Shown here: piece by piece, positions 1 through 56,317 of the stretch
Layout: the number at the start of each line of letters is the position of its first letter
Position numbering within the stretch: the stretch's first letter is position 1
DNA from: Natronosalvus amylolyticus
GTDB taxonomy: Archaea; Halobacteriota; Halobacteria; Halobacteriales; Natrialbaceae
Reading direction: 5' to 3'
Assembly (NCBI RefSeq): GCF_024298845.1
Contig: NZ_CP101160.1
Coordinates: 124,001 to 188,000, forward strand
DNA length: 64,000 nucleotides
Program-made: the position numbers and the translations under genes
The notes under the pieces: model-generated
Told to the model about the DNA's origin: nothing
Databases searched by the model: none
The model's input: only the letters and a program-made list of their open reading frames with translations

Positions 1-792
1 GACGGCGTCGTGTGCGTTCTGGGAGTTTAGCCCAGTTCTGAGGTTGATGCCGTACACCGTGTGATCGGTGATCGTATTTTCGCTGATTACTGCATTGGGC
101 GTCCAGACGGAGAGCCCCCCGTCGTGGTTCGCGATCGTGTTCCCTTCGATCGTGACTTCCTCACCACCGGCCCCGCCTCGAATGTAGATCCCGAGTCCCG
201 TGCCGGATGCCGAGTTACCGTTCGCCTCGAGGTGGTTCCCGGTGATCTGGACGCGATCGCTTCCCTGGATAGAGACGCCCCGAATCGGATTGTGTTCGAT
301 GACGTTGTCGACGATCACCATATCGTGTGAGGTGGTATCGAAGTCGCGAATCGCCTGATCGTTCTCGGTGATCGTATTCGATGCGATGGTCGCGTTCGGA
401 CTGTTCTCGATCCGGACCCCGGTAGCGTACCCGCGGATCTCGAGGCCCTCGACGGTGACGTTGGATGCACCGTCGATGTGGACACCCGTCCCTGAAGAAC
501 CCTGCAACACCGGGTTGGCTCCCGATGTCGCCGCAATGGTGACCCCCTCAGTCGTCACCTGCAGGTTCTCGTCGTACGTTCCCGTCCCCACGCAAATCGT
601 GTCCCAGGGGTCTGCCGCGTCGATGGCGTCCTGGATACTCTCACCCGGACCCACGACAAGACAGTCCTCTGTGATGTTGGCAGAACCAGTAATAGATACG
701 AAAGGAACGACGATAGAGCCGACCATGAGAACCGAAAATACGATGGCAAAAATCCGGATCAGTAATGGGGTTTGCTTCTCCTGATAATACAT
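1..792 (-). CDS. Secreted right-handed beta-helix (NosD-like) protein, C-terminus cut off by window edge
   Basis: The frame stays open from an ATG at 792 down to base 1, giving 264 codons with no stop, so the C-terminus lies outside the window. Residues 10-35 form a hydrophobic signal or anchor segment. After that come short repeats of the kind found in parallel beta-helix proteins (NosD, pectate-lyase-like): runs such as ITENDQAI and VIVDNVIEHNP with regularly spaced Asn and Ile/Val. The family is extracellular; here the ligand or substrate is unknown. Upstream, GTAAC-type hexamers at 838-866 resemble those upstream of the neighbouring PQQ protein. Surface location is well supported; any enzymatic role is not. 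Confidence 0.8.
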   Translation of the reverse strand, partial: MYYQEKQTPLLIRIFAIVFSVLMVGSIVVPFVSITGSANITEDCLVVGPGESIQDAIDAADPWDTICVGTGTYDENLQVTTEGVTIAATSGANPVLQGSSGTGVHIDGASNVTVEGLEIRGYATGVRIENSPNATIASNTITENDQAIRDFDTTSHDMVIVDNVIEHNPIRGVSIQGSDRVQITGNHLEANGNSASGTGLGIYIRGGAGGEEVTIEGNTIANHDGGLSVWTPNAVISENTITDHTVYGINLRTGLNSQNAHDAV

Positions 793-19471: not shown

Positions 19472-20914
19472 TTAGACCTCCCCGGAGCCACCTGCTGTTG
19501 ACTCAGTTGACTTCTCACTAGCAGTGCGCTCGAGTTCGTCTCGCTGGACTCGCTCGAGTTCATCATCAATTATCCATTTCATCACATGAAGAAAAACGAC
19601 CACGAGTATCGTATACACGATCGCAAATGCGGTCAACGAGACTGTCACCTGTGTCGATGTTAGCGTCTGGGAGACCCCCTCGCTGGTCAGTTGAACGTCC
19701 TGGATAATCCATGGCTGACGGCCGATTTCGGTGACGTACCAGCCAACGATGGTCGCGACAAAACCAAGCGGAATCGATGCCATCAGCGCTTTCAAATGCC
19801 AGCTACGTTCGTAGAGTCCCCCCTTTCGAATTCGGTAGACACTCCACAGTCCGAGCGCAATAAACCAGAATCCAAGAAATACCATCGTCCGGAAAGACCA
19901 AAAGACGTACGCGACAGGTGGATTCTTCACATCGAACTCCTCGAGGCCGTAGACCACACCTGTTGGATCAGCCTCGGCCAGAATCGATGTCAGATACGGA
20001 ATACTGATCGTAAACAAATCTTCGGCCCGCGGGTCCGTGATATCCGCAAGGTTCCGTGGAAATGCTAGCAGATGCAAGGGTGCCCCCTCTTTCGTTTCGT
20101 AGAGTGCCTCCATCGCGGCGAATTTCATCGGTTGTGTCTGGACGACGTGGCGGGTATACATGTCGCCATGGATTACCTGGAATATCGAGGTGATCGCGAG
20201 GACGCCGACCGAGAGTTTGAGTGTCCCGCGCCAGGGCTCGCTCTCGGGATTCGCCCATACGAAGTAGGCTGCAACACCGGCGACCAACAGCGTCACCGAT
20301 ATGATTGCGGCATTTTGCATGTGGACGTACATCCAGAACAATCGCGGCGGGAAGTAGGCCGCGAGTGGATCCGTGAGTACGACTCCTGCCACGCCGTTGT
20401 CTTCGACGAGTTCGTATCCCTGTGGTGTTTGCATCCAGGAGTTGACAATGAGTATCCAGAACGCTGACAGCCATGCGCCGATCATCACCAGCACTGACGA
20501 GAGAACGTAGACCCGGTCGCTGACTCGGTCACGTCCGAACAACAGGATGCCGAGAAAAACGGCCTCGAGGAAGAAGGCCATTGTCGACTCGAATGCGAGT
20601 GGGCCGCCGATCAACTCGCCAGCAAACTCGGAGAACTCCGGAAAGTTGGTCCCGAACTGGAAGCTCATCGGAATCCCCGTTGCGGTCCCCATAACGAAAC
20701 CAATCGCGAATACTTTTGTCCAGAACGAGCGTAACCGTTTGTACTTTTTTTCACCGGTCGAAACCTCCTTCCAGGTAAAATAGACGATGTAGGGTGCAAG
20801 CCCGACCGAAAGGGCTGCAAAGACGATATGGACCGACAATGTGCCGCCGAATTGAATACGACTGCCTACCTCGGGGTCGATCAAGAGTGGGTCGATTATG
20901 AGTGAATCGAACAT
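19472..20914 (-). CDS. cydA: Cytochrome bd-type quinol oxidase subunit I (second set)
   Basis: 480 residues, starting at the ATG at 20914. Family markers include the N-terminal RIQFGGTLSVHIVFAA (His29 as a candidate haem ligand), GIPMSFQFGTN, WMYVHMQNAA with a second His, and GRQPWIIQ. The Q-loop is short (KFAAMEALYET), as in the short-loop bd oxidases. A charged Glu/Ser-rich C-terminal tail lies in the cytoplasm. It follows the DUF1641 gene by 91 bp. bd oxidases are known to resist sulfide, which fits their pairing here with SQR. Confidence 0.92.
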   Translation of the reverse strand: MFDSLIIDPLLIDPEVGSRIQFGGTLSVHIVFAALSVGLAPYIVYFTWKEVSTGEKKYKRLRSFWTKVFAIGFVMGTATGIPMSFQFGTNFPEFSEFAGELIGGPLAFESTMAFFLEAVFLGILLFGRDRVSDRVYVLSSVLVMIGAWLSAFWILIVNSWMQTPQGYELVEDNGVAGVVLTDPLAAYFPPRLFWMYVHMQNAAIISVTLLVAGVAAYFVWANPESEPWRGTLKLSVGVLAITSIFQVIHGDMYTRHVVQTQPMKFAAMEALYETKEGAPLHLLAFPRNLADITDPRAEDLFTISIPYLTSILAEADPTGVVYGLEEFDVKNPPVAYVFWSFRTMVFLGFWFIALGLWSVYRIRKGGLYERSWHLKALMASIPLGFVATIVGWYVTEIGRQPWIIQDVQLTSEGVSQTLTSTQVTVSLTAFAIVYTILVVVFLHVMKWIIDDELERVQRDELERTASEKSTESTAGGSGEV

Positions 20915-23685: not shown

Positions 23686-25161
23686 ATGCACCTTAGTGAA
23701 ACGCTGCCAACAATTGATGCCGTACTGATGGTTTTGATAACCGAACTATGGCCGATACTCACATTTCTCTCACCTGAACTCGCCAGTCGTATTCAGTTTG
23801 GATGGGCAATCACAATTCACATCATTTTTGCGTCGCTCTCTGTCGGACTTGCGCCGTTTCTGGTTTATTTCACCGTCCAAGAAGTTCGAACTGGCGAGCA
23901 ACGATACGCACGACTCCGAGCGTTCTGGACAAAGATCTTCGCGGTCGGTTTCATCATGGGGACCGTGACCGGCATTCCGATGGGATTTATGTTCGGGACC
24001 AATTTCGCCGCGTTTTCCAAGACTGCTGGGGAACTGATTGGGGGCCCGCTCTCATTCGAAGCCAAGATGGCCTTCTTCCTCGAGGCGGTTTTTCTCGGCG
24101 TCCTGTTGTTTGGTCGTGAACGGGTGTCAGATCGGTTTTACGCCTTCTCATCGTTTATGGTTGCACTCGGTGCCTGGCTCTCGGCGTTCTGGATCTTGGT
24201 CGTCAACTCCTGGATGCAGACACCGCGCGGCTACGAAATCGTAATGGAAGAGGGCGTCCCGATCGCTGAACTCACCGATCCGCTGGCGGCATTTTTCAAT
24301 CCACGCTTCCCGTGGATGTACGTCCACATGCAGAACGCTGCTGTCATCTCTGTTACGTTGCTAATTGCGGGCATTGCAGCCTATTTCGTCTGGAAGAATC
24401 GTGACAGTGATGTTTGGAAAACTGCACTTCGGGTGGCCGTTGTCGTCCTCTTCTTGACGTCGATGTTCCAGGCCGTTCATGGTGACATGTATGGTCGCCA
24501 CGTTGCCGAAACCCAGCCTCACAAGTTCGCTGCGATGGAGGCGCATTACGAGACAGGAGCTGCGGACTTACACATCGTTGCCATTCCAATGGATTTTGAA
24601 GCGATTACTGACCCTCGAGCCGACAACCTTTACACAATAAGCATTCCCCACTTCGCCTCGTTCCTTGCTAGCGGTGGTGATCCGAACGCTGAAGTAATTG
24701 GACTCAACGATTTTGAGTACGATTCCCCACCAGTAGCCTGGGTGTTCTGGTCGTTTCGGGCGATGGTTGGACTTGGCTTTTGGTTCATCGCACTCGGTGG
24801 CTGGGGGACTTATCGCTTATGGAAGGGAGGTATCGCTCACGATGATCGACTTCTGAAAGCACTAATGATCTCCTCACCGCTTGGTTTTGTTGCCCTGATC
24901 ACTGGCTGGTACGTCGCCGAAATCGGCCGTCAGCCCTGGATTATTCAAGGTGTCCTCAAAACGTCTGACGGTGTCTCTCCACCATTGACAGGGACTGAAG
25001 CAACACTGACACTAATCGCGTTCGTCGTTGGATACATCTTATTAATCGGTGTTTTCCTTCACATATTGAGACGGATTGTCAACGAGGAGGCTCAACGACA
25101 CGAAGTTGGCATTGACGAGGACGATCAAATCGATTCACCTGGGGTGCCCGCAGATGACTGA
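23686..25161 (+). CDS. cydA: Cytochrome bd-type quinol oxidase subunit I (first set)
   Basis: 491 residues from the first ATG. Because the TATA box lies only ~17 bp upstream, the ATG at 23728 may be the true start (477 residues, matching the paralogue's N-terminus). It shows RIQFGWAITIHIIFAS, GIPMGFMFGTNF, WMYVHMQNAA, HKFAAMEAHYET and GRQPWIIQ, the subunit I markers with a short Q-loop. It is close to the minus-strand paralogue over its whole length. Its stop overlaps the cydB start, so the two are co-translated. Confidence 0.92.
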   Translation: MHLSETLPTIDAVLMVLITELWPILTFLSPELASRIQFGWAITIHIIFASLSVGLAPFLVYFTVQEVRTGEQRYARLRAFWTKIFAVGFIMGTVTGIPMGFMFGTNFAAFSKTAGELIGGPLSFEAKMAFFLEAVFLGVLLFGRERVSDRFYAFSSFMVALGAWLSAFWILVVNSWMQTPRGYEIVMEEGVPIAELTDPLAAFFNPRFPWMYVHMQNAAVISVTLLIAGIAAYFVWKNRDSDVWKTALRVAVVVLFLTSMFQAVHGDMYGRHVAETQPHKFAAMEAHYETGAADLHIVAIPMDFEAITDPRADNLYTISIPHFASFLASGGDPNAEVIGLNDFEYDSPPVAWVFWSFRAMVGLGFWFIALGGWGTYRLWKGGIAHDDRLLKALMISSPLGFVALITGWYVAEIGRQPWIIQGVLKTSDGVSPPLTGTEATLTLIAFVVGYILLIGVFLHILRRIVNEEAQRHEVGIDEDDQIDSPGVPADD

Positions 25162-33731: not shown

Positions 33732-33930
33732 AGTCGATCTCGAGTGACTTCCACCCCGAGACGGTTAAACGTGTGACACGAACTGCCTCATGCCGTGACA
33801 TCGCAACGAAATCCCTTTGGATACATGCTCTTCTGATGGTATCACCATTAACAATACTGGAGGCTAACCGCTCCCGAAAAGGAATATCGGTCGATACGTT
33901 TATAGTAAATTATATTGAATGTCAGGTTGA

Positions 33931-34635
33931 ATGGACCGACACGAGGAAGCGTTTGTTCGGGGTGAGTCCCCAACAGAATGCACGCCAGGGTTTTTACAAT
34001 CTCGTTTAGAGCTGATGAAAGGGACTGGGTGTAACCTTCTCGTGACCGGATCCGTCGCTCCTGAAGTGACGTTTCACGCCACGAGAAACCTGTTTGGGGC
34101 GGACCAGGCGAAGACTCCACGACAGCGACTCCTCGCGTGTACCGACCTCGAGCCACCGGCAAATCACTATCTGTTGACTGGCTACGAGCAACCGCCCGAG
34201 CGAGTCACGACAAGCGGCATCGAACGTGGGGTGACGACCGTCGACTCACCGATCGATCACACGCTCACGTCCCAATCGAGCTGGCTTCGATCGTATCAAC
34301 GGAATCTCTGTGAGTCGATCGCCGATATCGATGCCAGCGTGGATGGCCTCGAGCCATCGCAGTTCCGTCTGGCCTTTCTGACACTACGCCCTATTCTCGA
34401 GAACGACTGTTCGTACGAGGCGGGCCAGTTTTTGCGGGTGGTGACCGACGTCGTCGAGGGCGTTTCCGGAATGGCACACTATCATCTTCCGGTTGCGAAC
34501 GAATCGCCGTTGGTCGAGGAGTGTATCGACCACTTCGACGTACAGATTCAACTTCGGAATCCTGACGGTGGGTCAGCCGAAACCCGATGGCGGTTTCCAG
34601 ACGCGGATACGATCACACCATGGCACAAACTATGA
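33931..34635 (+). CDS. RecA-like protein without Walker A (DUF7504-type), first gene of the CHAT pair
   Basis: 234 residues; TTTATAG at 33899-33905 is 26 bp upstream, so it is leaderless. The NLLVTGSVAPEV start, RRRLLACTD-like strand (here QRLLACTDLE) and FLTLRPILENDC resemble the haloarchaeal DUF7504 group, which has a RecA/KaiC core. The phosphate-binding loop is absent: after the first strand it reads GSVAPEVTFH rather than GxxxxGK(S/T). It would bind rather than hydrolyse nucleotide, if at all. It is followed after 9 bp by a CHAT-domain gene with its own ribosome site (GAGGGGG), so the two are one operon. Confidence 0.75.
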   Translation: MDRHEEAFVRGESPTECTPGFLQSRLELMKGTGCNLLVTGSVAPEVTFHATRNLFGADQAKTPRQRLLACTDLEPPANHYLLTGYEQPPERVTTSGIERGVTTVDSPIDHTLTSQSSWLRSYQRNLCESIADIDASVDGLEPSQFRLAFLTLRPILENDCSYEAGQFLRVVTDVVEGVSGMAHYHLPVANESPLVEECIDHFDVQIQLRNPDGGSAETRWRFPDADTITPWHKL

Positions 34636-34644
34636 GGGGGAAAC

Positions 34645-36741
34645 ATGAGTAACCAGTTCAATCACCCGGAGATTCGTGGACGGGGGGCGAAAATCGACCT
34701 GTGGGACCCGATCGAACGGTCCTCGATGGGGTTTACCGTTCCCGACCCGGTATCCCTCGAGCCAGTCGATCCCGAGGCGATGGCGTTCCCCGTCGATGCT
34801 GCTGTCGAATTTCAGACCGCAGAGATCCAATGCGATGGGTTACACGACGTGCACGTCTGGACGCTGAACGGCGACTTTGTCGCAGAATCGACCAACGGCG
34901 ACCCGCTGTTTCTCCCACCCGGTGAGTATATCTTCGATATCACCGGCCCGATCAAGACGTATTTCCAGGTCGGGACGACTCTCCAGGTCGTATCGAACGA
35001 GGCCGAAACGTCGATTTTCTTCGGTGGGACGAACACCGTCACGCTCGGCGTCCGCTCGTTTCACACTCATCCAGCCGGTGAGATTCCGGTCAGTGACGAC
35101 CCCTATTCGTTGCTCGAGGCGATTCCCTTCCTCGCCTCCTCGCTGAAAACGCTCTCCCCCGAACGGTCGTTCCCCACGTTTCGTGGTCATCCACCCCAAC
35201 TCGTGCGAACCGAGGACGAGGCCGAACTCGAGAACGCGACGGCGGGATTGGAAAAACCCGATACCGACATTTATCTCGAGGTGCCGCCGGACTTTCAACA
35301 TCTGTACCCCATTGCGCCGTTAGCGTTCTATCTCGGGGCTGACGTGTTGCCCAGTCGAACGCCACAGTTGCGAACGCCATCGAAACGGACGCCGTTTTCC
35401 AGTATCGACGAGCCCTACGACAGTGCGGTTTCACAGTTACTCCAGCAGGTTTTCTTCCTCGATTGTATTACCCGAACTGAGGGGTACTTCCAGGTACCGC
35501 TCCACGAACGAGAGGAGTTTGAACGGGCGCTCGCCGGCCACGATGCGGGTCCGGACGCGCTCGATTTCGCCGCGTTGTACGAGGCACCGATTGCCGAACG
35601 CATCGAGCGCTATCTCGAGGTTCCCTTCGAGGCGTTCGAACACCTGTTGCCGGAGTGGAGACTCACCGCAGACGTCCAGCCGGACGCTGACTACCTCGAG
35701 AGTTTGCCGTTTTTGGTCGCTGACCTCGCGACGATTCGGTGTCCCGATCCAACACCTGTCGAGAACGTTCGTGAAACACCTCAGCCACTACAGGATTTCT
35801 TCAGGGATGGATCGCTCGAGCACCCGAACATGGAGTTCATCGATACACCGCGAGCGGATTCGCTCGAGCAGACCTTCGTCGGCGATTCCAACCCGCTCGA
35901 TGCCTCGAAGGCGACGCTCGAGTCGTTCGAATCGAGGTTCGACCGCTCGTTGAAACAACCCGAGGACATGGAGGTGGTTGTCGTCGTGAACAACGAGGAA
36001 ATGAGCGCCGAGGGTGATATCGTCTCGGACGCCTATCGCCGGTTCGAAGAGACCGGGGCGAGTGTGCGTTTTGTCGAGGATATCACCAGCGATCGGTTAC
36101 GTTCCATCTTCCAGTCGAATCTGGATTTCGTCCACTACATCGGGCACGTCGATGGTCGCGGCCTCGAGTGTGCCGATTCGTATTTCGATGCGACTGATTG
36201 CGGGGACTATGACGTTGATGCGTTTATTTTGAACAGTTGTCAGTCGTATTCACAGGGTGAAGCGCTAATTCAGGGCGGATGTATTGGTGGAGTTGTGACA
36301 GCGTCACCTGTATTAAATGAACCTGCCGTCGAGATCGGTGGTACCTTCGCACGGTTGCTGTCTGATGGTTTTTCGCTTCGAGCAGCGACAAACATCGCCA
36401 CTGAAGAGCGATTAATCGGCAATCAGTATCTGGTGATCGGAGATGGTGAGGTACGGATTGTGGATGGAGAGGACGCCACACCAAACGTTTGTTCAATCAT
36501 GGAGCGTGGTGATGGCCTCTATGACATTGAGATTGAAACGTACCCCAATAATACGCTGGATATGGGTTGTCTCTTCACACCGTATATACCTGGTGTGAAT
36601 AAAAGATATCTAACCTCGGGGAGCATCAAAGATATTGTTATAGACAAATCTGATTTACAAAACTATCTAACAATGAGCGATATGCCTGTGAAATATGCCG
36701 GTGAACTTCTATGGAGTTCGACGTTACTCGAGCGTTTGTGA
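34645..36741 (+). CDS. CHAT-domain caspase-like protein
   Basis: 698 residues. The N-terminal ~130 residues are beta-rich (AVEFQTAEI, DVHVWTLNGDF, PPGEYIFDITG). A helical middle (about 150-400) follows. Residues ~440-640 match the CHAT peptidase layout: a strand (MEVVVVVNNEE), then FVHYIGHVDGRG with His501, then FILNSCQSYSQGEALIQGG with Cys532, then GGVVTASPVLNEPAVEIGGTFAR. His501 and Cys532 are the candidate catalytic dyad. From about 36230 the DNA is noticeably AT-richer than before, which suggests a different history for the C-terminal part. CHAT proteases act in archaeal and bacterial cell-death or defence responses. Target unknown. Confidence 0.8.
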   Translation: MSNQFNHPEIRGRGAKIDLWDPIERSSMGFTVPDPVSLEPVDPEAMAFPVDAAVEFQTAEIQCDGLHDVHVWTLNGDFVAESTNGDPLFLPPGEYIFDITGPIKTYFQVGTTLQVVSNEAETSIFFGGTNTVTLGVRSFHTHPAGEIPVSDDPYSLLEAIPFLASSLKTLSPERSFPTFRGHPPQLVRTEDEAELENATAGLEKPDTDIYLEVPPDFQHLYPIAPLAFYLGADVLPSRTPQLRTPSKRTPFSSIDEPYDSAVSQLLQQVFFLDCITRTEGYFQVPLHEREEFERALAGHDAGPDALDFAALYEAPIAERIERYLEVPFEAFEHLLPEWRLTADVQPDADYLESLPFLVADLATIRCPDPTPVENVRETPQPLQDFFRDGSLEHPNMEFIDTPRADSLEQTFVGDSNPLDASKATLESFESRFDRSLKQPEDMEVVVVVNNEEMSAEGDIVSDAYRRFEETGASVRFVEDITSDRLRSIFQSNLDFVHYIGHVDGRGLECADSYFDATDCGDYDVDAFILNSCQSYSQGEALIQGGCIGGVVTASPVLNEPAVEIGGTFARLLSDGFSLRAATNIATEERLIGNQYLVIGDGEVRIVDGEDATPNVCSIMERGDGLYDIEIETYPNNTLDMGCLFTPYIPGVNKRYLTSGSIKDIVIDKSDLQNYLTMSDMPVKYAGELLWSSTLLERL

Positions 36742-36752
36742 ACGATTCGGTA

Positions 36753-36899
36753 TTAGATACCGCCTGTTGTACCAGATCGACCGCCAGCGACAACTGTCCC
36801 CACCTGTGAGAGCAGGATCATCGCTGCGAACATCATGCCAATGAGCCGGGGGTGGTTCTTGAGGAATTCTGCCGTCTTTGAGGTGTCCGTTTGGGACAT
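36753..36899 (-). CDS. 48-residue membrane microprotein (DUF7503-type) convergent with the CHAT gene
   Basis: ATG at 36899, TAA at 36753-36755. It starts MSQTDTSKTAEFLKNHPRLIG, has one helix (MMFAAMILLSQVGTVVAGG) and ends RSGTTGGI. The convergent stop is only 11 bp from the CHAT stop. A strong AT-rich TATA region (TTATTTAAAATATT, about 36928-36942) lies upstream. I recall small haloarchaeal proteins of this kind beside DUF7504 and CHAT genes, not checked here. The helix and amphipathic start make a small membrane effector or toxin one possibility; a regulatory role is equally open. Confidence 0.72.
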   Translation of the reverse strand: MSQTDTSKTAEFLKNHPRLIGMMFAAMILLSQVGTVVAGGRSGTTGGI

Positions 36900-37206
36900 A
36901 TCGTGACCTGGGAGCGCGATTGTTATTATATTATTTAAAATATTCTTACTATAAGATTAAAGGAACAATGTGATTGGTCTGTGAAGTATTGCGTGAGCGG
37001 CTGTCTCAGAACCTCTACTCTCGATTTAGCTTTGTGTCATAGTACCAAACACACCCTATCCGCTATCTCGAGGACCTCCCTTCGCATTCGAAACGCATGT
37101 GCGAAAACGCACGGATACTACATACCGAAATGGCGTTCTCGAGTGGGATGATCGTTCAGTCACGAAAAATCCGTCAACTCGAGGACGTATTGCGCAGGAA
37201 TCCCTA
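36900..37206. other. Intergenic region between the CHAT cluster and the amine oxidase
   Basis: Left third is AT-rich (36915-36970) and serves as promoter for the 48-residue gene. The rest shows nothing beyond the 3' side of the amine oxidase gene. No further gene seen. Confidence 0.45.
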
Positions 37207-39225
37207 TCAGTCGTCCTCAGCGTCCACGTGACAACTTCCATGCCCCGGCACGTCCTGCCCGTCGATGGCGTGCTGTGGCGGGACGTCTATAGCCGGACTC
37301 TCGTCGAAGAAGTTCACGGGCTGAAGCTTGAAGCTGTAGACCTGTGCGGGGAGGATTGGCCAATCCTCCGGTCGAGTCACGTGATTGACCCCGAGGGTGT
37401 ACCAGAGCACGAGGTCTTCTTCCTCGAGATTTCGATCCGCTTCGGTCCAGGCAGGTAGACCGGCACCGCCGGGATGCTGATTCGGGAACGTGCCGGCCGG
37501 GAACCGTTCGTTCTCCCGATAGGGGGTCGCCCAGAGGTGGTATTTGATGAAGCCGGAACGCTCGAGGACGCTCGAACCCGGTTGCATCGCCGCTTCGACG
37601 TTGCCACCGGGCAGCAGTCGGTAGCCCGTCGACTTCCCGAGCGAATTTTCGGCGCTGGGGTTGACGACCTGCCAGTATCGGCCCTTGAGCGGGTCGATGA
37701 GGTCTTTGGCCTGTGATTCACTTGAGAGTTTCGTCCGGTCGGCATAGAACGCTTGCCCGCCGGGGTTCGTCGTCCGCTCGTCAGCATCACCCATCGGATC
37801 GAGTCCGCCCGGTCCAACGGGCACCTGCTGGTTCTGCACGCGATAGAGTGAATTTGGCCCGTCGTCGACGTTCATATCGAGCCGGAAATTGAAGAAGTGC
37901 TGGTGGATGGGGCCGTTGAGTTGCGGTGCGAGCAGTTCGCCGTAGCCTTCGGGATCCTCGTCCGGGCCGACGGCGGAGACGCTGTCGATCCCAGTTAGCC
38001 GGACCTCGACCTCCATGGACGCATCCTGGTAGAAATACCAGTTGAAGATATAATCGTAGTTTCCGACGGCTGCGACGAACGAGACGACGAGTCGGCGTCG
38101 TCGTCGAACTTCGTCGGACTGGGTACGCCAGTCGCTTCGCTCCCAGAGCGTGCCGTTGTCTTCCTCGTGGAGACAGATGGCGTTCTCGAGGCGGTTAACC
38201 TCTCCCTCGGCCGTGTTCATCACGGCGTCCCAGTAATGCATGTGGCCCAGACAGTCACAGCCGTTTGTCAGGGACTTGGCGAGTCGACCGATGTTGTACT
38301 CGCCGACGTCCATGGCGTTTTTGAACCGGTCGTTGATGTTCTGGTCGCCGTAGGGAACCGACATCTCGACGCAGGAGGCCCGGTCGATGATTGAGCGAAC
38401 CTCGCCGTCGTCTTCGTAGCCGATTTCGTGGAGGACGAGCCCTTCGCGCTGGGTCCAGCCGACGCGCATGTGCCAGTTTTGCCACTCGAGTTTGCGTCCC
38501 TCGACGCTCCAACTCGGACCGTCGGGCTGATCGACGTTGTACGGAGCCAGATCGTCCCGGAGATCGACCTCCCCCTCGCGATAGGCCATTCCCTTTGGTG
38601 GGATGGGATTCTCCGCATCCGGTGGGCCGTAGTCGACGATTTCGACGACCTCCATGCGGTCGAGGTCGACGAACGTGTGTAGTCCTGAGATGGGGTGAGC
38701 ATATCCCTCGTCCCCGACGTCCTCACTGGGTCGGAGGAACGTCAAGCCGTGGGCCAACCGTTTCGACCGATCGACGCTTTCAGGGATAAACTCGTGGCCG
38801 ACCGACCAGGGATCGACCATCGCCCGATCAGTGTTCTCGACACCACGGGCTTTTACTGCCTGTTGCCATTCTTCGTGGGCTTTGACGGTTTCCTCGCACT
38901 CGATGAACTCCTCGATGGCAATCGAGGGCTGTCCGTCGACGTGCTCGAGGGTGACGACCGACTCGGCATCGAGGTCAACGATGGCAGAGATGGTTTCCCG
39001 GTCGGCGCTTTTCCGGATGACGATTCTGGCGCGCCGGGTTGGGCTTTCACCTCCGTCATCGTAGGCCTGCATGGCTTCTTTCGACGGCTCATCGAGTTCG
39101 ACTTTGATGCAGAGGCTCGCCTTGCCAAGGTCGTGTTCGGTGACGAGGACGTCATACGCGGCTTCGATCTCCGATGGCTGTAGCGGATCGAGTGGATGAC
39201 CGATCATCTTGGTGGATGATACCAT
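37207..39225 (-). CDS. Copper-containing primary-amine oxidase
   Basis: 672 residues from the ATG at 39225; TTTAAG about 30 bp upstream supports it over the ATG at 39273. The cofactor motif VGNYDYIFNWYF (codons near 38055) provides the Tyr that becomes topaquinone. The copper ligands lie in LNGPIHQHFFNF and LGVNHVTRPEDWPILP. The length is normal for the family. The enzyme converts a primary amine and O2 to aldehyde, ammonia and H2O2. It is divergent from an acetamidase-type gene and may belong to one nitrogen-scavenging set. The substrate amine is not readable. Confidence 0.95.
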   Translation of the reverse strand: MVSSTKMIGHPLDPLQPSEIEAAYDVLVTEHDLGKASLCIKVELDEPSKEAMQAYDDGGESPTRRARIVIRKSADRETISAIVDLDAESVVTLEHVDGQPSIAIEEFIECEETVKAHEEWQQAVKARGVENTDRAMVDPWSVGHEFIPESVDRSKRLAHGLTFLRPSEDVGDEGYAHPISGLHTFVDLDRMEVVEIVDYGPPDAENPIPPKGMAYREGEVDLRDDLAPYNVDQPDGPSWSVEGRKLEWQNWHMRVGWTQREGLVLHEIGYEDDGEVRSIIDRASCVEMSVPYGDQNINDRFKNAMDVGEYNIGRLAKSLTNGCDCLGHMHYWDAVMNTAEGEVNRLENAICLHEEDNGTLWERSDWRTQSDEVRRRRRLVVSFVAAVGNYDYIFNWYFYQDASMEVEVRLTGIDSVSAVGPDEDPEGYGELLAPQLNGPIHQHFFNFRLDMNVDDGPNSLYRVQNQQVPVGPGGLDPMGDADERTTNPGGQAFYADRTKLSSESQAKDLIDPLKGRYWQVVNPSAENSLGKSTGYRLLPGGNVEAAMQPGSSVLERSGFIKYHLWATPYRENERFPAGTFPNQHPGGAGLPAWTEADRNLEEEDLVLWYTLGVNHVTRPEDWPILPAQVYSFKLQPVNFFDESPAIDVPPQHAIDGQDVPGHGSCHVDAEDD

Positions 39226-39356
39226 GGAACAAGTTCCGGCGCATATTGACTTAAACCTCCGGTGCGAAGACATGTTTTCATCCAGCCTCGGTACCGGTCG
39301 CTCGAGCGCGATCTCGAGGCTTCCAACCCGAATAGTGGCTCCGCAAGCCCGAACGT

Positions 39357-42355: not shown

Positions 42356-42468
42356 GCTGCAAGCGCCGTTTCGGTTGTAGCCGAATGTCGGTTCGGACAC
42401 GACGTTTCCACAATCACCTCTCGAGTTTGGGTCAACGATTATGTACTGGAATCGTGTTTGTTAGATTC

Positions 42469-45400
42469 ATGGGTAACCCTATCCGTGTTTTACATGTCCA
42501 GACGGAGACCGAATTCGCCGATAGGGTTTCGACTACCCTCGAGCAGGCACACGAGGCACTCACTGTCGAAACGGCGGGCAGCGTGGAAGAAGGTCTCTCA
42601 GCCGTCTCCGAACGTACTATTCACTGTGTACTTTCGGCTGCCGAACTTTCCGAACGCAACGGTCTCGATTTATATTCGGATATTTGTCGAGAGGACGAAT
42701 CGATGCCATTTATCCTCTATGCGAAAGAAGGAACGAAACAACCCCTCCGCGATGCCGTCTCGGCTAATATCTCCGAGTACGTTCCCAGAAATCGCCTCCT
42801 CGAGGCTCCCGAAAGGGTCACAGCGACCATCGAAGCAATCGTCGTACAATCGCGTCAACAACGTAAGAAACAGCACCTGCTCGATGCACTCGAGGCGGCC
42901 AACGAGGGCATTTGTCTCGTCGACGAATCGGACGAGTTCGCCTACGTTAACGAGGCGTACGCTGATCTGTACCGATACGAAGCTGAATCGATGGTCGGCG
43001 AATCCTGGGGACTGGTTCATCCGGAAGCCGATACCGAGGAACTGCACGAATCGATCCTCCCGACTGTCGAGGCGAACGGTGACTGGCAGGGGGAGACGAC
43101 CGGGCTCCGAGCAGACGGCACGACGTTCGTTGGCGCACAAACGATTGAGAAGAGCGAAGACGGGTACGTGTGTACGGTGCAGGATGTTTCCGATACGAAA
43201 CAGCGAAAGCGACGGTTCGAAGCCATTTTCAATAACACCTATACGTTCGTCGGGCTGATGGAGCCCGATGGAACGTTGCTCGAAGCGAACGAAGCAGCCC
43301 TGTCGTTCGGCGGCGTCGATCGGGAATCGGTCGTCGATCGGCCGCTCTGGGAGACCTACTGGTTCAGGGGGACGGAGGCGACACAGCGGGCTGCTCGAGC
43401 GGCGATACAGCAGGCGAGAAACGGGACGATGTACCGCGACGAAATCACGGTACGGGGTGCTGACCGCGAAATCGTTATCGACTTTTCCGTACGGCCGGTG
43501 ACGAACGACGAGGGAGAAGTTACCTTACTCATCCCGGAGGGTCGAAATATCAGCGAGCGAAAGCAGTATCTCCGACAACTCGAGACGCTTGTCGATAATC
43601 TCCCAGGTATCGCTTATCGGTCACTGAACGAGAGAGGATGGGCGATGGAAAATGTGGGCGGCGAGGTCGAGACGTTAACGGGGTATACCGCGTCAGAACT
43701 GACGAGTAATAGTGGACTGTACGGCAAGGAACTTATCCACGAGGCTGATCGAGATATGGTGTGGGAAACGGTTCAAAGTGCTCTCCAGGAGCGTGAATCG
43801 TTCGAGCTCACGTACCGAATCAGAACGAAGGACGGGAAGTTAAAATGGGTCTGGGAACAGGGGCAGGGAATCTATTCGTCCGCTGGAGAAATCGAAGCCA
43901 TTGAGGGGTTTATTACGGACATCACCGAACGAAAGCGTATTACCGACGAACTCCGGGAAGAGCGCGTATTCATCGACCAGGCTCTCGATGCGCTCGATGA
44001 CGTGTTTTACGTGTTCGACAGGGATGGGGAGATACGTCGATGGAACTCGAAGCTTTCGTCTGTCACCGGGTATCGTGACGAGGATATAGACGAGATGTCG
44101 GTCGCGGATTTCGTTCCGCCGGAGGAACAGGAACGGATACTGTCTGCCTTCAGTGATGCACTGGAAACGGGTTCTGCCGTCATCGAGTCGGCGTTATGTA
44201 CCGCTGATGGTGACAGCATTCCCTACGAGTTCACCGGCGCGAGGTTGACTGATTCTGAAGGGGCGACCGATGGACTCGTTGGGGTCGGCCGGGATATCAC
44301 CGAACGACGACGGTACGAAGTGATGTTGAAGACGCTGCACGAGCGAACACGGGAGATGACTCGAGCGGACCAGACGGACACGATTGCCGACATTGCTGTG
44401 GAGGCGACTGACGACCTGCTCGATCTGGAACAGGCAGTGGTTTTCGAATTCGACGGCGGCAACTCGCTCGTTCCGCTCGCAGGGCCGACGCCACTCGACG
44501 GGACACAGTCTGACCGTCCTGCCGTAGATACAAACGAGAGTGACCTGTGGGAAGCCTTCGCCGATGGAGAATCGCGCTTTCTCGAGGAAACCGAAGGGAC
44601 CGTATTACAGACTTTTTCGATCGAAACTGCGCTGGTTCTTCCGGTCGGAAATCACGGCGTGTTCGTGATCGGATCGGCTGACGAGTTGTCACTCGATCGG
44701 ACACAACGTGAGTTTGCACACCTGATGAAAGAGAATTTGGCGGCGGCGTTCGACCACGCCAAACGGGAACGTGACCTCGGAAGACGTGACAGGCAGCTAC
44801 AACGACAGAACGAATCGCTCGAGCAACTGAATCGGCTCAACGAACTGATTCGAGACATCAATCAGGCGCTCATCCGATCCGCATCACGGGCACAGATCAG
44901 CGAACGTGTCTGTAAGGGTCTGTCCGGCGCTGACGAGTACGCATTCGCCTGGCTGTGTACCCGTGACACTGCCGGTGAAGGATTCGAGCCAGTGGCCTGG
45001 AGCGGTGTGGATTCCGAATACATTGCCCATCTCGAGGAGACAGCACCCGAAACGCCGTTAGCAGAACTGATCGATCAGGCGTTTCGTTCGGCCGAAAGCG
45101 TCATCGCCAAGCAAGTTCTGGGACAACCCGAGTGGGAGCTTTATCGCCGAGACGCGCTGAATCAGGGATTCCGTGCTGTGGCGGCGATTCCGATCTCGAG
45201 AAATGGGCGTACCGACGGCGTCATCGTTATTCACGCGACTGCGGACGATATCTTCGACGACGAGGAGGTCCGGGTCCTCGAAGAACTTGGTGAAACGATC
45301 GGTTACGCCTTCGGTAACGTCGAGCGATTGCACGGGTTGCAGACGAACGAACACACCGAGATCGAGATCGAAATCACCGACGAACGCTTGTTCACGAATC

Positions 45401-46005
45401 GACTCGCTCAGCGGTTGGATGCAACTGTCGAATTTGTCGGCGCCGTCGATGTCGAAAGCGACGCGGCTCGAGTTTTCGTCCAATTTCAGGGCTTCGATGG
45501 CGGCGCGATCACAGACCGACTCTCCGAACTGGAGGCTGTATCCGAAAGTCGGCAGCTCTTTGCCGAAGACGGGACGCACCTTTGTCACCTCACCATCACC
45601 ACTCCACAGCTGTTCTCGATTGTACAGGGTAGTGGACGTATTCAGTCACTCGAGAGTGCCGGAACTACGACGACCGCTACTATCGCGCTCATCCAGACGG
45701 TCGACGTTCGGTCGATAATCGAACAGCTTCAGGGTGCCTATTCACAGACCGAGCTCGTCGCCCGGCGCGAAAAGGAAGTTCCTGTCGGGACGCGTGAGAC
45801 GTTCCGTGAACAGCTACTAAACGAACTGACCGAAAAACAATTCGATGCGTTGCAATCGGCGTACTACGGTGGTGGATATGAGTGGCCACGACGGAGTACG
45901 AACGAGGAACTTGCCGCGACCAAAGACATCGCTCCGTCGACGTTCCAGTATCATCTACGCGCGGCAGAACGCAAAATCATCTCGATGATCCTGTCGCCGT
46001 CGTAA
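42469..46005 (+). CDS. Very large receiver-like/PAS/GAF regulator with HTH_10 domain
   Basis: 1178 residues from the ATG at 42469. Order: a receiver-like domain (5-115) without the phospho-acceptor Asp, where the acceptor strand reads CVLSAAELSERNG; four PAS-type units (about 130-605); a GAF-like region (615-760); a coiled linker and second GAF (780-960); a bacterio-opsin-activator N-region (965-1115); and C-terminal HTH_10 (EKQFDALQSAYYGGGYEWPR). There is no kinase domain, so it acts as a direct sensor-regulator, not a histidine kinase. Signals bound by the PAS/GAF units are unknown. A short membrane protein and a HalOD1 protein follow. Confidence 0.88.
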   Translation: MGNPIRVLHVQTETEFADRVSTTLEQAHEALTVETAGSVEEGLSAVSERTIHCVLSAAELSERNGLDLYSDICREDESMPFILYAKEGTKQPLRDAVSANISEYVPRNRLLEAPERVTATIEAIVVQSRQQRKKQHLLDALEAANEGICLVDESDEFAYVNEAYADLYRYEAESMVGESWGLVHPEADTEELHESILPTVEANGDWQGETTGLRADGTTFVGAQTIEKSEDGYVCTVQDVSDTKQRKRRFEAIFNNTYTFVGLMEPDGTLLEANEAALSFGGVDRESVVDRPLWETYWFRGTEATQRAARAAIQQARNGTMYRDEITVRGADREIVIDFSVRPVTNDEGEVTLLIPEGRNISERKQYLRQLETLVDNLPGIAYRSLNERGWAMENVGGEVETLTGYTASELTSNSGLYGKELIHEADRDMVWETVQSALQERESFELTYRIRTKDGKLKWVWEQGQGIYSSAGEIEAIEGFITDITERKRITDELREERVFIDQALDALDDVFYVFDRDGEIRRWNSKLSSVTGYRDEDIDEMSVADFVPPEEQERILSAFSDALETGSAVIESALCTADGDSIPYEFTGARLTDSEGATDGLVGVGRDITERRRYEVMLKTLHERTREMTRADQTDTIADIAVEATDDLLDLEQAVVFEFDGGNSLVPLAGPTPLDGTQSDRPAVDTNESDLWEAFADGESRFLEETEGTVLQTFSIETALVLPVGNHGVFVIGSADELSLDRTQREFAHLMKENLAAAFDHAKRERDLGRRDRQLQRQNESLEQLNRLNELIRDINQALIRSASRAQISERVCKGLSGADEYAFAWLCTRDTAGEGFEPVAWSGVDSEYIAHLEETAPETPLAELIDQAFRSAESVIAKQVLGQPEWELYRRDALNQGFRAVAAIPISRNGRTDGVIVIHATADDIFDDEEVRVLEELGETIGYAFGNVERLHGLQTNEHTEIEIEITDERLFTNRLAQRLDATVEFVGAVDVESDAARVFVQFQGFDGGAITDRLSELEAVSESRQLFAEDGTHLCHLTITTPQLFSIVQGSGRIQSLESAGTTTTATIALIQTVDVRSIIEQLQGAYSQTELVARREKEVPVGTRETFREQLLNELTEKQFDALQSAYYGGGYEWPRRSTNEELAATKDIAPSTFQYHLRAAERKIISMILSPS

Positions 46006-54706: not shown

Positions 54707-56317
54707 TCAGCGGTGAATCTCCGCTGCGAACAACTTCCGTTGGGCAGCCCGCAGGTGCTGCGTGAAGGTCGCCCGCGAAATGTCGAGGGCGTCGGCGAGT
54801 TCTCCCGTGTTGTTGTGGCGCGGTCGCTCGAAGTAGCCCGCCTCGACGGCGAGTTCGAGAACCTGTCGCTGGCGGTCGGTCAGGTCGTCGATCAGTTCGG
54901 CCCTCGAGGTAGTAGACTCGTCTGCGGTCCAGAGCGTTTTCACCGAACCCTCTCCGTAGCGGTCTGTGAGGGCGTCGACACACGTGCTGACGGTACTGTC
55001 ACCACCGAGGCCGACCGAAATCCGTGCTTGTCTGCTATTGACAACGGTTTTCGATAGCGAAACCCCGGCGTCGACGAGCCGTGTTTCGGGAGCCGACGAT
55101 TCGACGACGAGTCCACACGTGATGGCGTCGTCGGTGCGATAATAGTCGACCGAGAGGACAGTTTCGGTCGAGTCGACTCCGGCCGAGAGGTCGGCTCGTG
55201 TGACTTCCCGAACGGTCGTCACGTAGAGTACCTCGTCATCGTTTCGGGGGATAACCGTTGCGACGCGGAGCGTCACTCCCTCGGGGAGTGCTGTCGCAAG
55301 TTCGAGGAGCGGGTGGCACCCCTCGCTGAGTATGAAATCGACGGTCGTGGTGGCAGATGAGAGAAGTGTTCGTTTCCACGCGGTCGTCTGAAAGGCGTAA
55401 CCGACCGTTTCGGCGTACTCGGTGAGCAACGCCTGTTCACGGTCGTCGATCTGTGGCATCCGGCTATAGACCGTTAGTACACCGAAATAGACTCCGTTGT
55501 GACTGATCGGGATCGCAGCCACTACGCTAAACCCATGGTCGACGGCAACTCGCTCCCAGTCGGTCGACTCGTTTGTCGTTCCCTCGGTATCTGTCACCGC
55601 GTGGACGACCGGTTCGGTTTTCTCGAGTGCGCGGAACGCGGGTTCGGTGCAGTCGGCAGGCTGCGTTCCGGGCGTGATTACGGCTTCGAGATAGTCGGTG
55701 TCACCAGCCGTCGCCAGCGGGACAACCCCGTGGTCATCGTCGAGAACAGCAATCCACGCACAGGCGTAGCCGCTGTCGACCAGCTGCTCGCAGATGTTCC
55801 TGCCGAGCTCCGAACGGGTGGCTGAGGCGGTTACGGTCTCGAGGAGGGACTCCTTCTGGCGACGCTCGCGGGCCAACGCTCGGCGGCTCCGGTCAGCCTC
55901 CACAGCCGTTTCGATCCGGCGGACCAACCCGGTGGGTTGCTGGCCGAGATCCAGCTTTCGGACGTAGTCGGTAACCCGCTCGCCGATCGCATCGCTGGCA
56001 ACCGTCTCGTCACCCTCTCCGGTTACCAGGATAAACGGCAGATCCGGTTCGGTGGCACGAACCTCGGCCAACAGTTCGACACCGGTACCGTCACCGAGCT
56101 GGTAGTCACAGACGACACAGTCCGGTTCGGTGGCTGCGAGTGCATCTCGGGCCGCCTCGAAACTGGTCGCCGTCGATACACTGAGTCGCTCGTTGGAGCG
56201 CTCGAGCAGTCGACGCTGCGTCCGAGCCCACGTCTCGTCGTCGTCGATCAGGAGCACCGAAATCGGTCTGGGAGAAGTGGCTGGCGAAACTGCGTCTGCC
56301 GTATCGGTCACGGACAC
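54707..56317 (-). CDS. Receiver-GAF-HTH_10 response regulator
   Basis: 536 residues from a GTG at 56317; no in-frame ATG fits, and a CTATAAT-type TATA near 56375 gives a short leader. Residues 18-135 are a receiver with acidic DDD (25-27) and phospho-acceptor Asp71 (CVVCDYQLGDGTG). A GAF-like domain follows (about 165-310), then the bacterio-opsin-activator region (about 315-470) and C-terminal HTH_10 (LTDRQRQVLELAVEAGYFERPR). The kinase gene next to it, 135 bp upstream on the same strand, is the natural partner. Confidence 0.9.
   Translation of the reverse strand: MSVTDTADAVSPATSPRPISVLLIDDDETWARTQRRLLERSNERLSVSTATSFEAARDALAATEPDCVVCDYQLGDGTGVELLAEVRATEPDLPFILVTGEGDETVASDAIGERVTDYVRKLDLGQQPTGLVRRIETAVEADRSRRALARERRQKESLLETVTASATRSELGRNICEQLVDSGYACAWIAVLDDDHGVVPLATAGDTDYLEAVITPGTQPADCTEPAFRALEKTEPVVHAVTDTEGTTNESTDWERVAVDHGFSVVAAIPISHNGVYFGVLTVYSRMPQIDDREQALLTEYAETVGYAFQTTAWKRTLLSSATTTVDFILSEGCHPLLELATALPEGVTLRVATVIPRNDDEVLYVTTVREVTRADLSAGVDSTETVLSVDYYRTDDAITCGLVVESSAPETRLVDAGVSLSKTVVNSRQARISVGLGGDSTVSTCVDALTDRYGEGSVKTLWTADESTTSRAELIDDLTDRQRQVLELAVEAGYFERPRHNNTGELADALDISRATFTQHLRAAQRKLFAAEIHR

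What the first reader, a model, noticed from the sequence alone, without database searches (positions are those of the whole stretch)
33931..36899. RecA-like gene, CHAT caspase-like gene and convergent 48-residue membrane gene: candidate undescribed immune or cell-death system
Seen: a leaderless two-gene operon (234 and 698 residues, 9 bp apart) whose second product has a plausible His501/Cys532 CHAT dyad. A 48-residue single-helix protein ends 11 bp beyond it on the other strand, with its own strong AT-rich promoter. The RecA-like partner has lost the Walker A loop. Known: CHAT peptidases in prokaryotes cut partner proteins during defence and cell death, often with a sensor gene. Inference: the RecA-like protein senses, the CHAT protein cuts, and the small membrane protein is target or effector. 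Alternatives are a housekeeping protease set or unrelated neighbours.
Basis: partly seen in the sequence, partly recalled or inferred. Interest (0 to 1): 0.8.

Follow-up and report, generated by a model that had tools for sequence, protein, structure and literature searches.

The report
Archaeal caspase-like protease with peptide partner
In salt-loving archaea a caspase-like protease gene almost always faces, tail to tail, a tiny gene whose product ends in a short Gly-Pro peptide; in some species that tiny gene has become a string of up to 13 or so copies of the peptide, which points to an undescribed peptide-controlled protease rather than a membrane toxin.

Summary
In detail: P0001 is DUF7504 (KaiC/RecA fold, no Walker A), P0002 is a true CHAT/caspase-fold protein with the dyad H501/C532, and P0003 is DUF7503. 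The set is not a local accident. All 80 DUF7503 loci examined face a CHAT gene, and 150 of 164 distinct CHAT genes have a convergent DUF7503 (median 3 bp between stops). The same triad sits again on the main contig of the same genome. DUF7504 is optional (68/164).

The conserved business end of the small protein is its roughly 10-residue C-terminal tail ending in Gly-Pro (137 of 154 partners; dN/dS of the last two codons 0.006), not the membrane helix. In Haloplanus the helix was lost and the tail became a tandem array (2 to about 14 copies); the longer, more diverged arrays show strong purifying selection on the units. Loss of the GP end goes with changes in the CHAT protein's ERSxPTLRGHPP motif (permutation p 0.006). 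The window's own copy is a divergent one (ends GGI).

I infer a protease gated by, or processing, a dedicated peptide. Near-ubiquity, mostly vertical descent and signalling neighbours speak against a classic defence system; cell death is untested.

The parts
33898..33919 (+). TATA-like A+T-rich stretch about 20 bp before the operon ATG
   Evidence: read directly; function not tested
33931..34635 (+). DUF7504 protein (P0001), KaiC/RecA fold with Walker A lost; optional partner
   Evidence: Pfam E 7e-32; model pLDDT 86, Foldseek KaiC/RecA 2e-6; upstream of 68/164 CHATs
34645..36741 (+). CHAT/caspase-fold protein (P0002), 698 aa
   Evidence: model pLDDT 87, pTM 0.88; Foldseek gingipain, SAVED-CHAT, separase, Craspase; 463 related places in GTDB
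35164..35205 (+). codons 174-187 (RSFPTFRGHPPQLV here; family motif ERSxPTLRGHPP), inferred reader of the partner's tail end
   Evidence: near-invariant in the family; best 14-residue window for co-change with loss of the GP tail, permutation p 0.006
36145..36147 (+). catalytic His501 codon
   Evidence: H in 86/87 homologues
36238..36240 (+). catalytic Cys532 codon
   Evidence: C in 86/87 homologues
36753..36899 (-). DUF7503 small protein (P0003), 48 aa: HPR + hydrophobic helix + short tail; here the tail ends GGI instead of GP
   Evidence: Pfam E 2e-16; tail comparison
36920..36962 (-). A+T-rich promoter region of the small gene
   Evidence: conserved A+T peak over 146 homologues, absent before the CHAT operon

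Best explanation
A class-wide haloarchaeal module: a cytosolic CHAT cysteine protease whose dedicated, probably abundantly made partner is a short peptide unit (about 10 residues, ending in GP), carried once at the end of a roughly 45-residue membrane-helix protein or, in some lineages, as a soluble tandem array. The CHAT protein reads the end of this unit through its ERSxPTLRGHPP motif and perhaps residues beside the active site. Most likely the peptide gates the protease: a GP-ended peptide sits in or near the cleft as a product-like ligand and holds the enzyme in check until peptide supply or access changes. In arrays, cleavage after each internal GP would release identical GP-ended units. 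The convergent overlap of the two genes and the stronger-looking promoter of the small gene would keep the two products in opposition. DUF7504, a KaiC-like protein without Walker A, is an optional regulatory subunit. Shown: linkage, fold, dyad conservation, the tail as the conserved and multiplied unit, its selection, and statistical co-variation with CHAT. Inferred: physical docking, cleavage after GP, direction of control (inhibition rather than activation), antisense interference, and the physiological role.
For: DUF7503-centred sample: CHAT convergent in 80/80 loci (79 immediate, 1 about 1 kb away). CHAT-centred sample: DUF7503 in 76/80; of the four exceptions two are Haloplanus tandem forms and two are Halococcus helix-less partners, all ending GP. 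Over 164 distinct CHATs, 150 with DUF7503, stops overlapping by 4 bp in 27 and abutting in 27. 13 of 20 class genomes without DUF7503 have no CHAT, and two more have only broken or partial CHAT. GP end in 137/154 partners. dN/dS in close pairs: core 0.18, variable tail 0.30, last two codons 0.006. Haloplanus arrays: L217 13 units, 13 distinct DNA versions, pS 0.56, pN 0.028, dN/dS 0.028; L235 0.029; L236 13 units pN 0 with pS 0.31; L227 0.081; L233 0.076. Helix and array forms interleave on the Haloplanus CHAT tree. Co-variation: window 174-187, p 2e-6, permutation p 0.006; column 179 changed in 9/17 non-GP against 2/137 GP partners.
Against: No biochemical or expression data. Not every array supports purifying selection: L237 (two units) gives dN/dS 2.98 from very few changes, L234 gives 0.25, and L229 has too little variation to say. 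The co-variation rests on 7-8 origins of non-GP tails, and several of those lineages keep L179; the single-column permutation value is only 0.079. A sister CHAT group with intact dyad has no recognised partner (L018, L218-L221), and L019 is an intact member without one, so the fold can persist without it. The tail of the membrane form would lie outside the cell if the helix inserts N-in, where a CHAT protein without export signal could not read it. Stronger expression of the small gene is inferred from base composition only. Inhibition rather than activation is a choice, not a result.
Confidence: 0.45

Rival explanations
1. Peptide-precursor system: the small gene encodes a short signal peptide (pheromone- or RiPP-like). 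The helix is a signal peptide cut at an A-x-A site, the tail is the mature peptide, and the CHAT protein matures or perceives it; arrays are multi-copy precursors like yeast alpha-factor.
For: Columns before the tail look like a signal-peptidase site (V/A in 140/150 at -3, A/G in 146/150 at -1). Tail length after that site is nearly constant, mostly 8-9 residues. Tandem units have a constrained core and a free first position. GP is exactly C-terminal in the single-copy form and closes each internal unit in arrays.
Against: Array forms have no hydrophobic segment at all. No diversifying selection on the tail (0.30). No dedicated exporter or receptor among recurrent neighbours.
Confidence: 0.27
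2. One reading: DUF7504 senses, CHAT cuts, and the membrane peptide is the target that then damages the membrane, as in gasdermin systems.
For: CHAT fold and dyad real; single hydrophobic helix with conserved HP[RK], F, Q and G positions; gasdermin systems pair a caspase-like protease with a membrane effector (PMC9079055).
Against: Helix lost in Haloplanus and Halococcus while CHAT stays intact. DUF7504 absent upstream of most CHATs. No defence neighbours found and near-universal, mostly vertical distribution.
Confidence: 0.12
3. Intracellular signalling or housekeeping proteolysis: the tail is a degron-like docking tag and the module belongs to two-component signalling of haloarchaea, with no role in death or defence.
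For: HalX regulators (12 loci), PAS/histidine kinase and further DUF7504 genes recur next to the module; mostly vertical descent (25 genus changes against 42.5 shuffled); 12 of 12 Haloplanus genomes carry one copy.
Against: Does not by itself explain the convergent overlap or the arrays; some genera lack the module entirely.
Confidence: 0.14
4. Unrelated neighbours kept together by chance, or a chance antisense reading frame.
For: None found.
Against: Adjacency in 150 of 164 CHATs and purifying selection on the small frame.
Confidence: 0.01

Closest known systems
Bacterial gasdermin systems with caspase-like proteases
   Same: Neighbouring caspase/CHAT-type protease and a membrane-associated partner; the cut site need not be Arg or Asp (Runella protease cuts after Leu247; PMC9079055)
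   Different: Partner here is about 45 aa, not a gasdermin; genes convergent; helix dispensable; tail repeated in arrays
Craspase (TPR-CHAT/Csx29 with Csx30) and SAVED-CHAT
   Same: CHAT fold (Foldseek 6e-7 and 1e-3); a dedicated partner protein (Csx30 cut by Csx29, PMC10028731)
   Different: No CRISPR effector, TPR or SAVED domain seen in the module; partner is a short peptide
Gingipain R and separase (securin as separase inhibitor: own knowledge)
   Same: Among the best structural matches; separase offers a precedent for a dedicated inhibitor
   Different: No shared partner; low overall TM-scores (0.2-0.3 of the query), so only the protease core is alike
Multi-copy peptide precursors such as yeast alpha-factor or cyanobactin-type RiPPs (own knowledge)
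   Same: Tandem near-identical short units, with selection on the units in the longer arrays
   Different: No export signal in the arrays, no receptor or modifying enzymes found; protease of the CHAT type

Membership tests
CHAT / clan CD caspase-like peptidase | caspase/CHAT fold | tested here: met
CHAT / clan CD caspase-like peptidase | His-Cys dyad after adjacent strands | tested here: met
   H501 and C532 in 86/87; strands E493-499 and E524-529; distance not measured
CHAT / clan CD caspase-like peptidase | match to the Pfam CHAT model | tested here: inconclusive
   8 of 32 relatives match weakly, best E 0.0048; P0002 itself none
CHAT / clan CD caspase-like peptidase | peptidase activity | not testable with these tools
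   needs an assay
Bacterial gasdermin system | gasdermin partner protein | tested here: not met
   partner 39-54 aa, family DUF7503
CRISPR-associated CHAT (Craspase, SAVED-CHAT) | CRISPR effector, TPR or SAVED domain in the locus | tested here: not met
   no such family in the triad or among the recurrent neighbours identified
KaiC/RecA ATPase | RecA-type fold | tested here: met
KaiC/RecA ATPase | Walker A loop | tested here: not met
   VTGSVAPEVT at the loop position; also degenerate in aligned partners
Toxin-antitoxin-like pair | toxic gene never kept without its partner | tested here: inconclusive
   nearly always paired, but intact CHATs without a recognised partner exist in a sister group and at L019
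Toxin-antitoxin-like pair | toxicity relieved by the partner | not testable with these tools
   needs expression in cells
Defence island system | patchy, mobile, next to defence genes | tested here: not met
   95/117 genomes, mostly vertical; no PADLOC hit in ten flanking window genes; elsewhere only recurrent neighbours were identified

The most novel reading that the evidence does not exclude
An archaeal ribosomal peptide system in which a CHAT protease processes, or is controlled by, short GP-ended peptides encoded once behind a membrane/signal helix or in tandem multi-copy precursors; nothing like it was found in the papers searched.
Probability: 0.3. Interest if true: 0.88.

Novelty: new variant of a known kind. 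Interest (0 to 1): 0.7.

Why it matters
No substrate or control for a caspase-like protease in archaea was found in the papers searched. Here the partner is named by sequence, is small enough to synthesise, and is present in about four fifths of the haloarchaeal genomes sampled; the DUF7503 and DUF7504 controls also ring in the model organism Haloferax volcanii. The question of what such proteases do in archaea becomes directly testable.

Tried and rejected
Self-recognition by hypervariable tails: tail dN/dS is 0.30, not above 1. Membrane pore as sole function: contradicted by helix-less partners. Virus-borne copies: no relative in phage records or viral contigs. Sequence match to solved structures: none. 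DUF7503 outside the class: none in a 296-genome phylum sample. Literature on DUF7504, CHAT in haloarchaea and haloarchaeal peptide pheromones gave nothing relevant. The co-variation was looked at in three ways before the permutation test; the 14-residue window length was chosen once and not varied. The L018 antisense frame ending GGP at -4 may be chance; its relatives lack it.

Full report
The finding's coordinates and products are exact. P0001 belongs to DUF7504, P0003 to DUF7503, and P0002 is unassigned by sequence libraries. Structure prediction with an alignment of 56 sequences (pLDDT 87) and Foldseek place P0002 with gingipain R, SAVED-CHAT, separase, Craspase and caspases; P0001 (pLDDT 86) is a KaiC/RecA fold whose Walker A loop is gone.

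Adjacency. The same genome carries a second triad with the same layout on its largest contig (C1: DUF7503 1698063-1698185, CHAT 1698303-1700396, DUF7504 1700589-1701182) and further CHAT or DUF7504 genes alone. DUF7503 occurs in 95 of 117 class genomes and, in a 296-genome phylum sample, only in genomes of the window's order. Around 80 DUF7503 places a CHAT gene is always convergent, in one case about 1 kb away. Around 80 CHAT places, fetched without regard to DUF7503, 76 have it. Pooled to 164 distinct CHATs: 150 with DUF7503, median 3 bp between the stops, 27 overlapping by 4 bp; DUF7504 upstream in 68. Of 20 class genomes without DUF7503, 13 have no CHAT; G047 and G071 have only broken or partial ones; G002, G057, G078 and G086 have a sister group with intact dyad and no recognised partner; G080 is a Haloplanus array case.

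The small protein. Its core [HN]P[RK]..G..F....LLLSQAG is strongly conserved, followed by an A-x-A-like site and a short, nearly uncharged tail. 133 of 150 DUF7503 partners and the four helix-less partners end in GP. Among 36 close pairs dN/dS is 0.18 in the core, 0.30 in the variable tail and 0.006 in the last two codons (one pair was misregistered, which if anything raises the core value). So the end is fixed and the tail is not under diversifying selection.

Arrays. Twelve Haloplanus genomes have one CHAT each. Three keep the helix form (L228, L231, L232). The others, all with the same 4-bp overlap, have lost it and carry tandem tail units: counted by the unit pattern, L217 13, L227 7, L229 3 plus a leading unit, L233 6 plus a leading unit, L234 5, L235 10, L236 13 plus a leading unit, L237 2; L230 is partly masked. 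Differences between units, per array: L217 dN/dS 0.028 (pS 0.56, 13 distinct DNA versions), L235 0.029, L236 0 (pS 0.31), L227 0.081, L233 0.076, L234 0.251, L229 0 but with pS only 0.06, and L237 2.98, which rests on two units with pS 0.045. Strong purifying selection is thus shown for the longer, more diverged arrays; the short ones are uninformative or, in L237, point the other way on very few changes. Nonsynonymous differences within arrays fall at the first two unit positions and one middle position only. On the CHAT tree helix and array forms interleave (L231 with L237; L232 with L229), suggesting more than one conversion, though no support values were examined. DUF7504 is in one frame in most Haloplanus; in L217 it is split in two.

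Co-variation. Seven to eight lineages lost the GP end. By parsimony on the CHAT tree the 14-residue window 174-187 (ERSxPTLRGHPP region) is the best of all windows for excess change in those lineages (p 2e-6; 0.006 in 1000 permutations of matched clades). The best single column, 179, reaches only 0.079 in the same permutation; it is changed in 9 of 17 non-GP and 2 of 137 GP partners. Columns 506, 531 and 537, near the dyad in sequence, also differ, but mainly in one clade. The window's own protein has F179, H393 and S531 and its partner ends GGI; the N. hydrolyticus copy ends the same way.

Context. Recurrent neighbours are HalX-type regulators (12 loci), PAS/histidine kinase, and further DUF7504. 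PADLOC finds nothing in the triad or in ten flanking window genes. Descent is mostly vertical (25 genus changes, minimum 20, shuffled 42.5). Some copies lie on plasmids (24 records), most annotated as hypothetical and one or two as caspase family or CHAT domain protein. No viral relative was found.

Reading. The tail, not the helix, is what selection keeps; its end changes together with a motif in the CHAT protein; arrays multiply it. GP is exactly C-terminal in single-copy forms, yet internal in arrays, which suggests that cleavage after GP makes equivalent ends. Whether the peptide restrains, activates or is simply made by the protease is open; I rank gating first, a peptide precursor second, and the signalling and membrane-effector models behind them.

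Noticed in passing
G000:C1:1698063-1701182 (locus L020): Second complete triad in the same genome, with a canonical GP-ended tail (GNGNAYIGP), unlike the window's GGI.
   Followed up: yes
L018 and L218-L221: Sister CHAT group with intact dyad (GHC...NACGSY) and no DUF7503 partner; partner, if any, unknown.
   Followed up: partly
L021 (G000:C1:3032542 region): CHAT paralogue that has lost both dyad residues (N and R), a likely dead enzyme.
   Followed up: no
upstream of DUF7503 in 146 loci: Enriched ATAAGATAA-like words in the small gene's promoter region, possibly a regulator site.
   Followed up: no
window 42385-46002 and 54710-56317: Large receiver-PAS-GAF-HTH_10 regulator and a second receiver-GAF-HTH_10 protein lie further along the window.
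   Followed up: no
window 37210-39273: Copper amine oxidase gene next to the small gene's promoter side.
   Followed up: no
window 19475-20914 and 23686-25158: Two cytochrome bd subunit I genes within 6 kb of each other.
   Followed up: no
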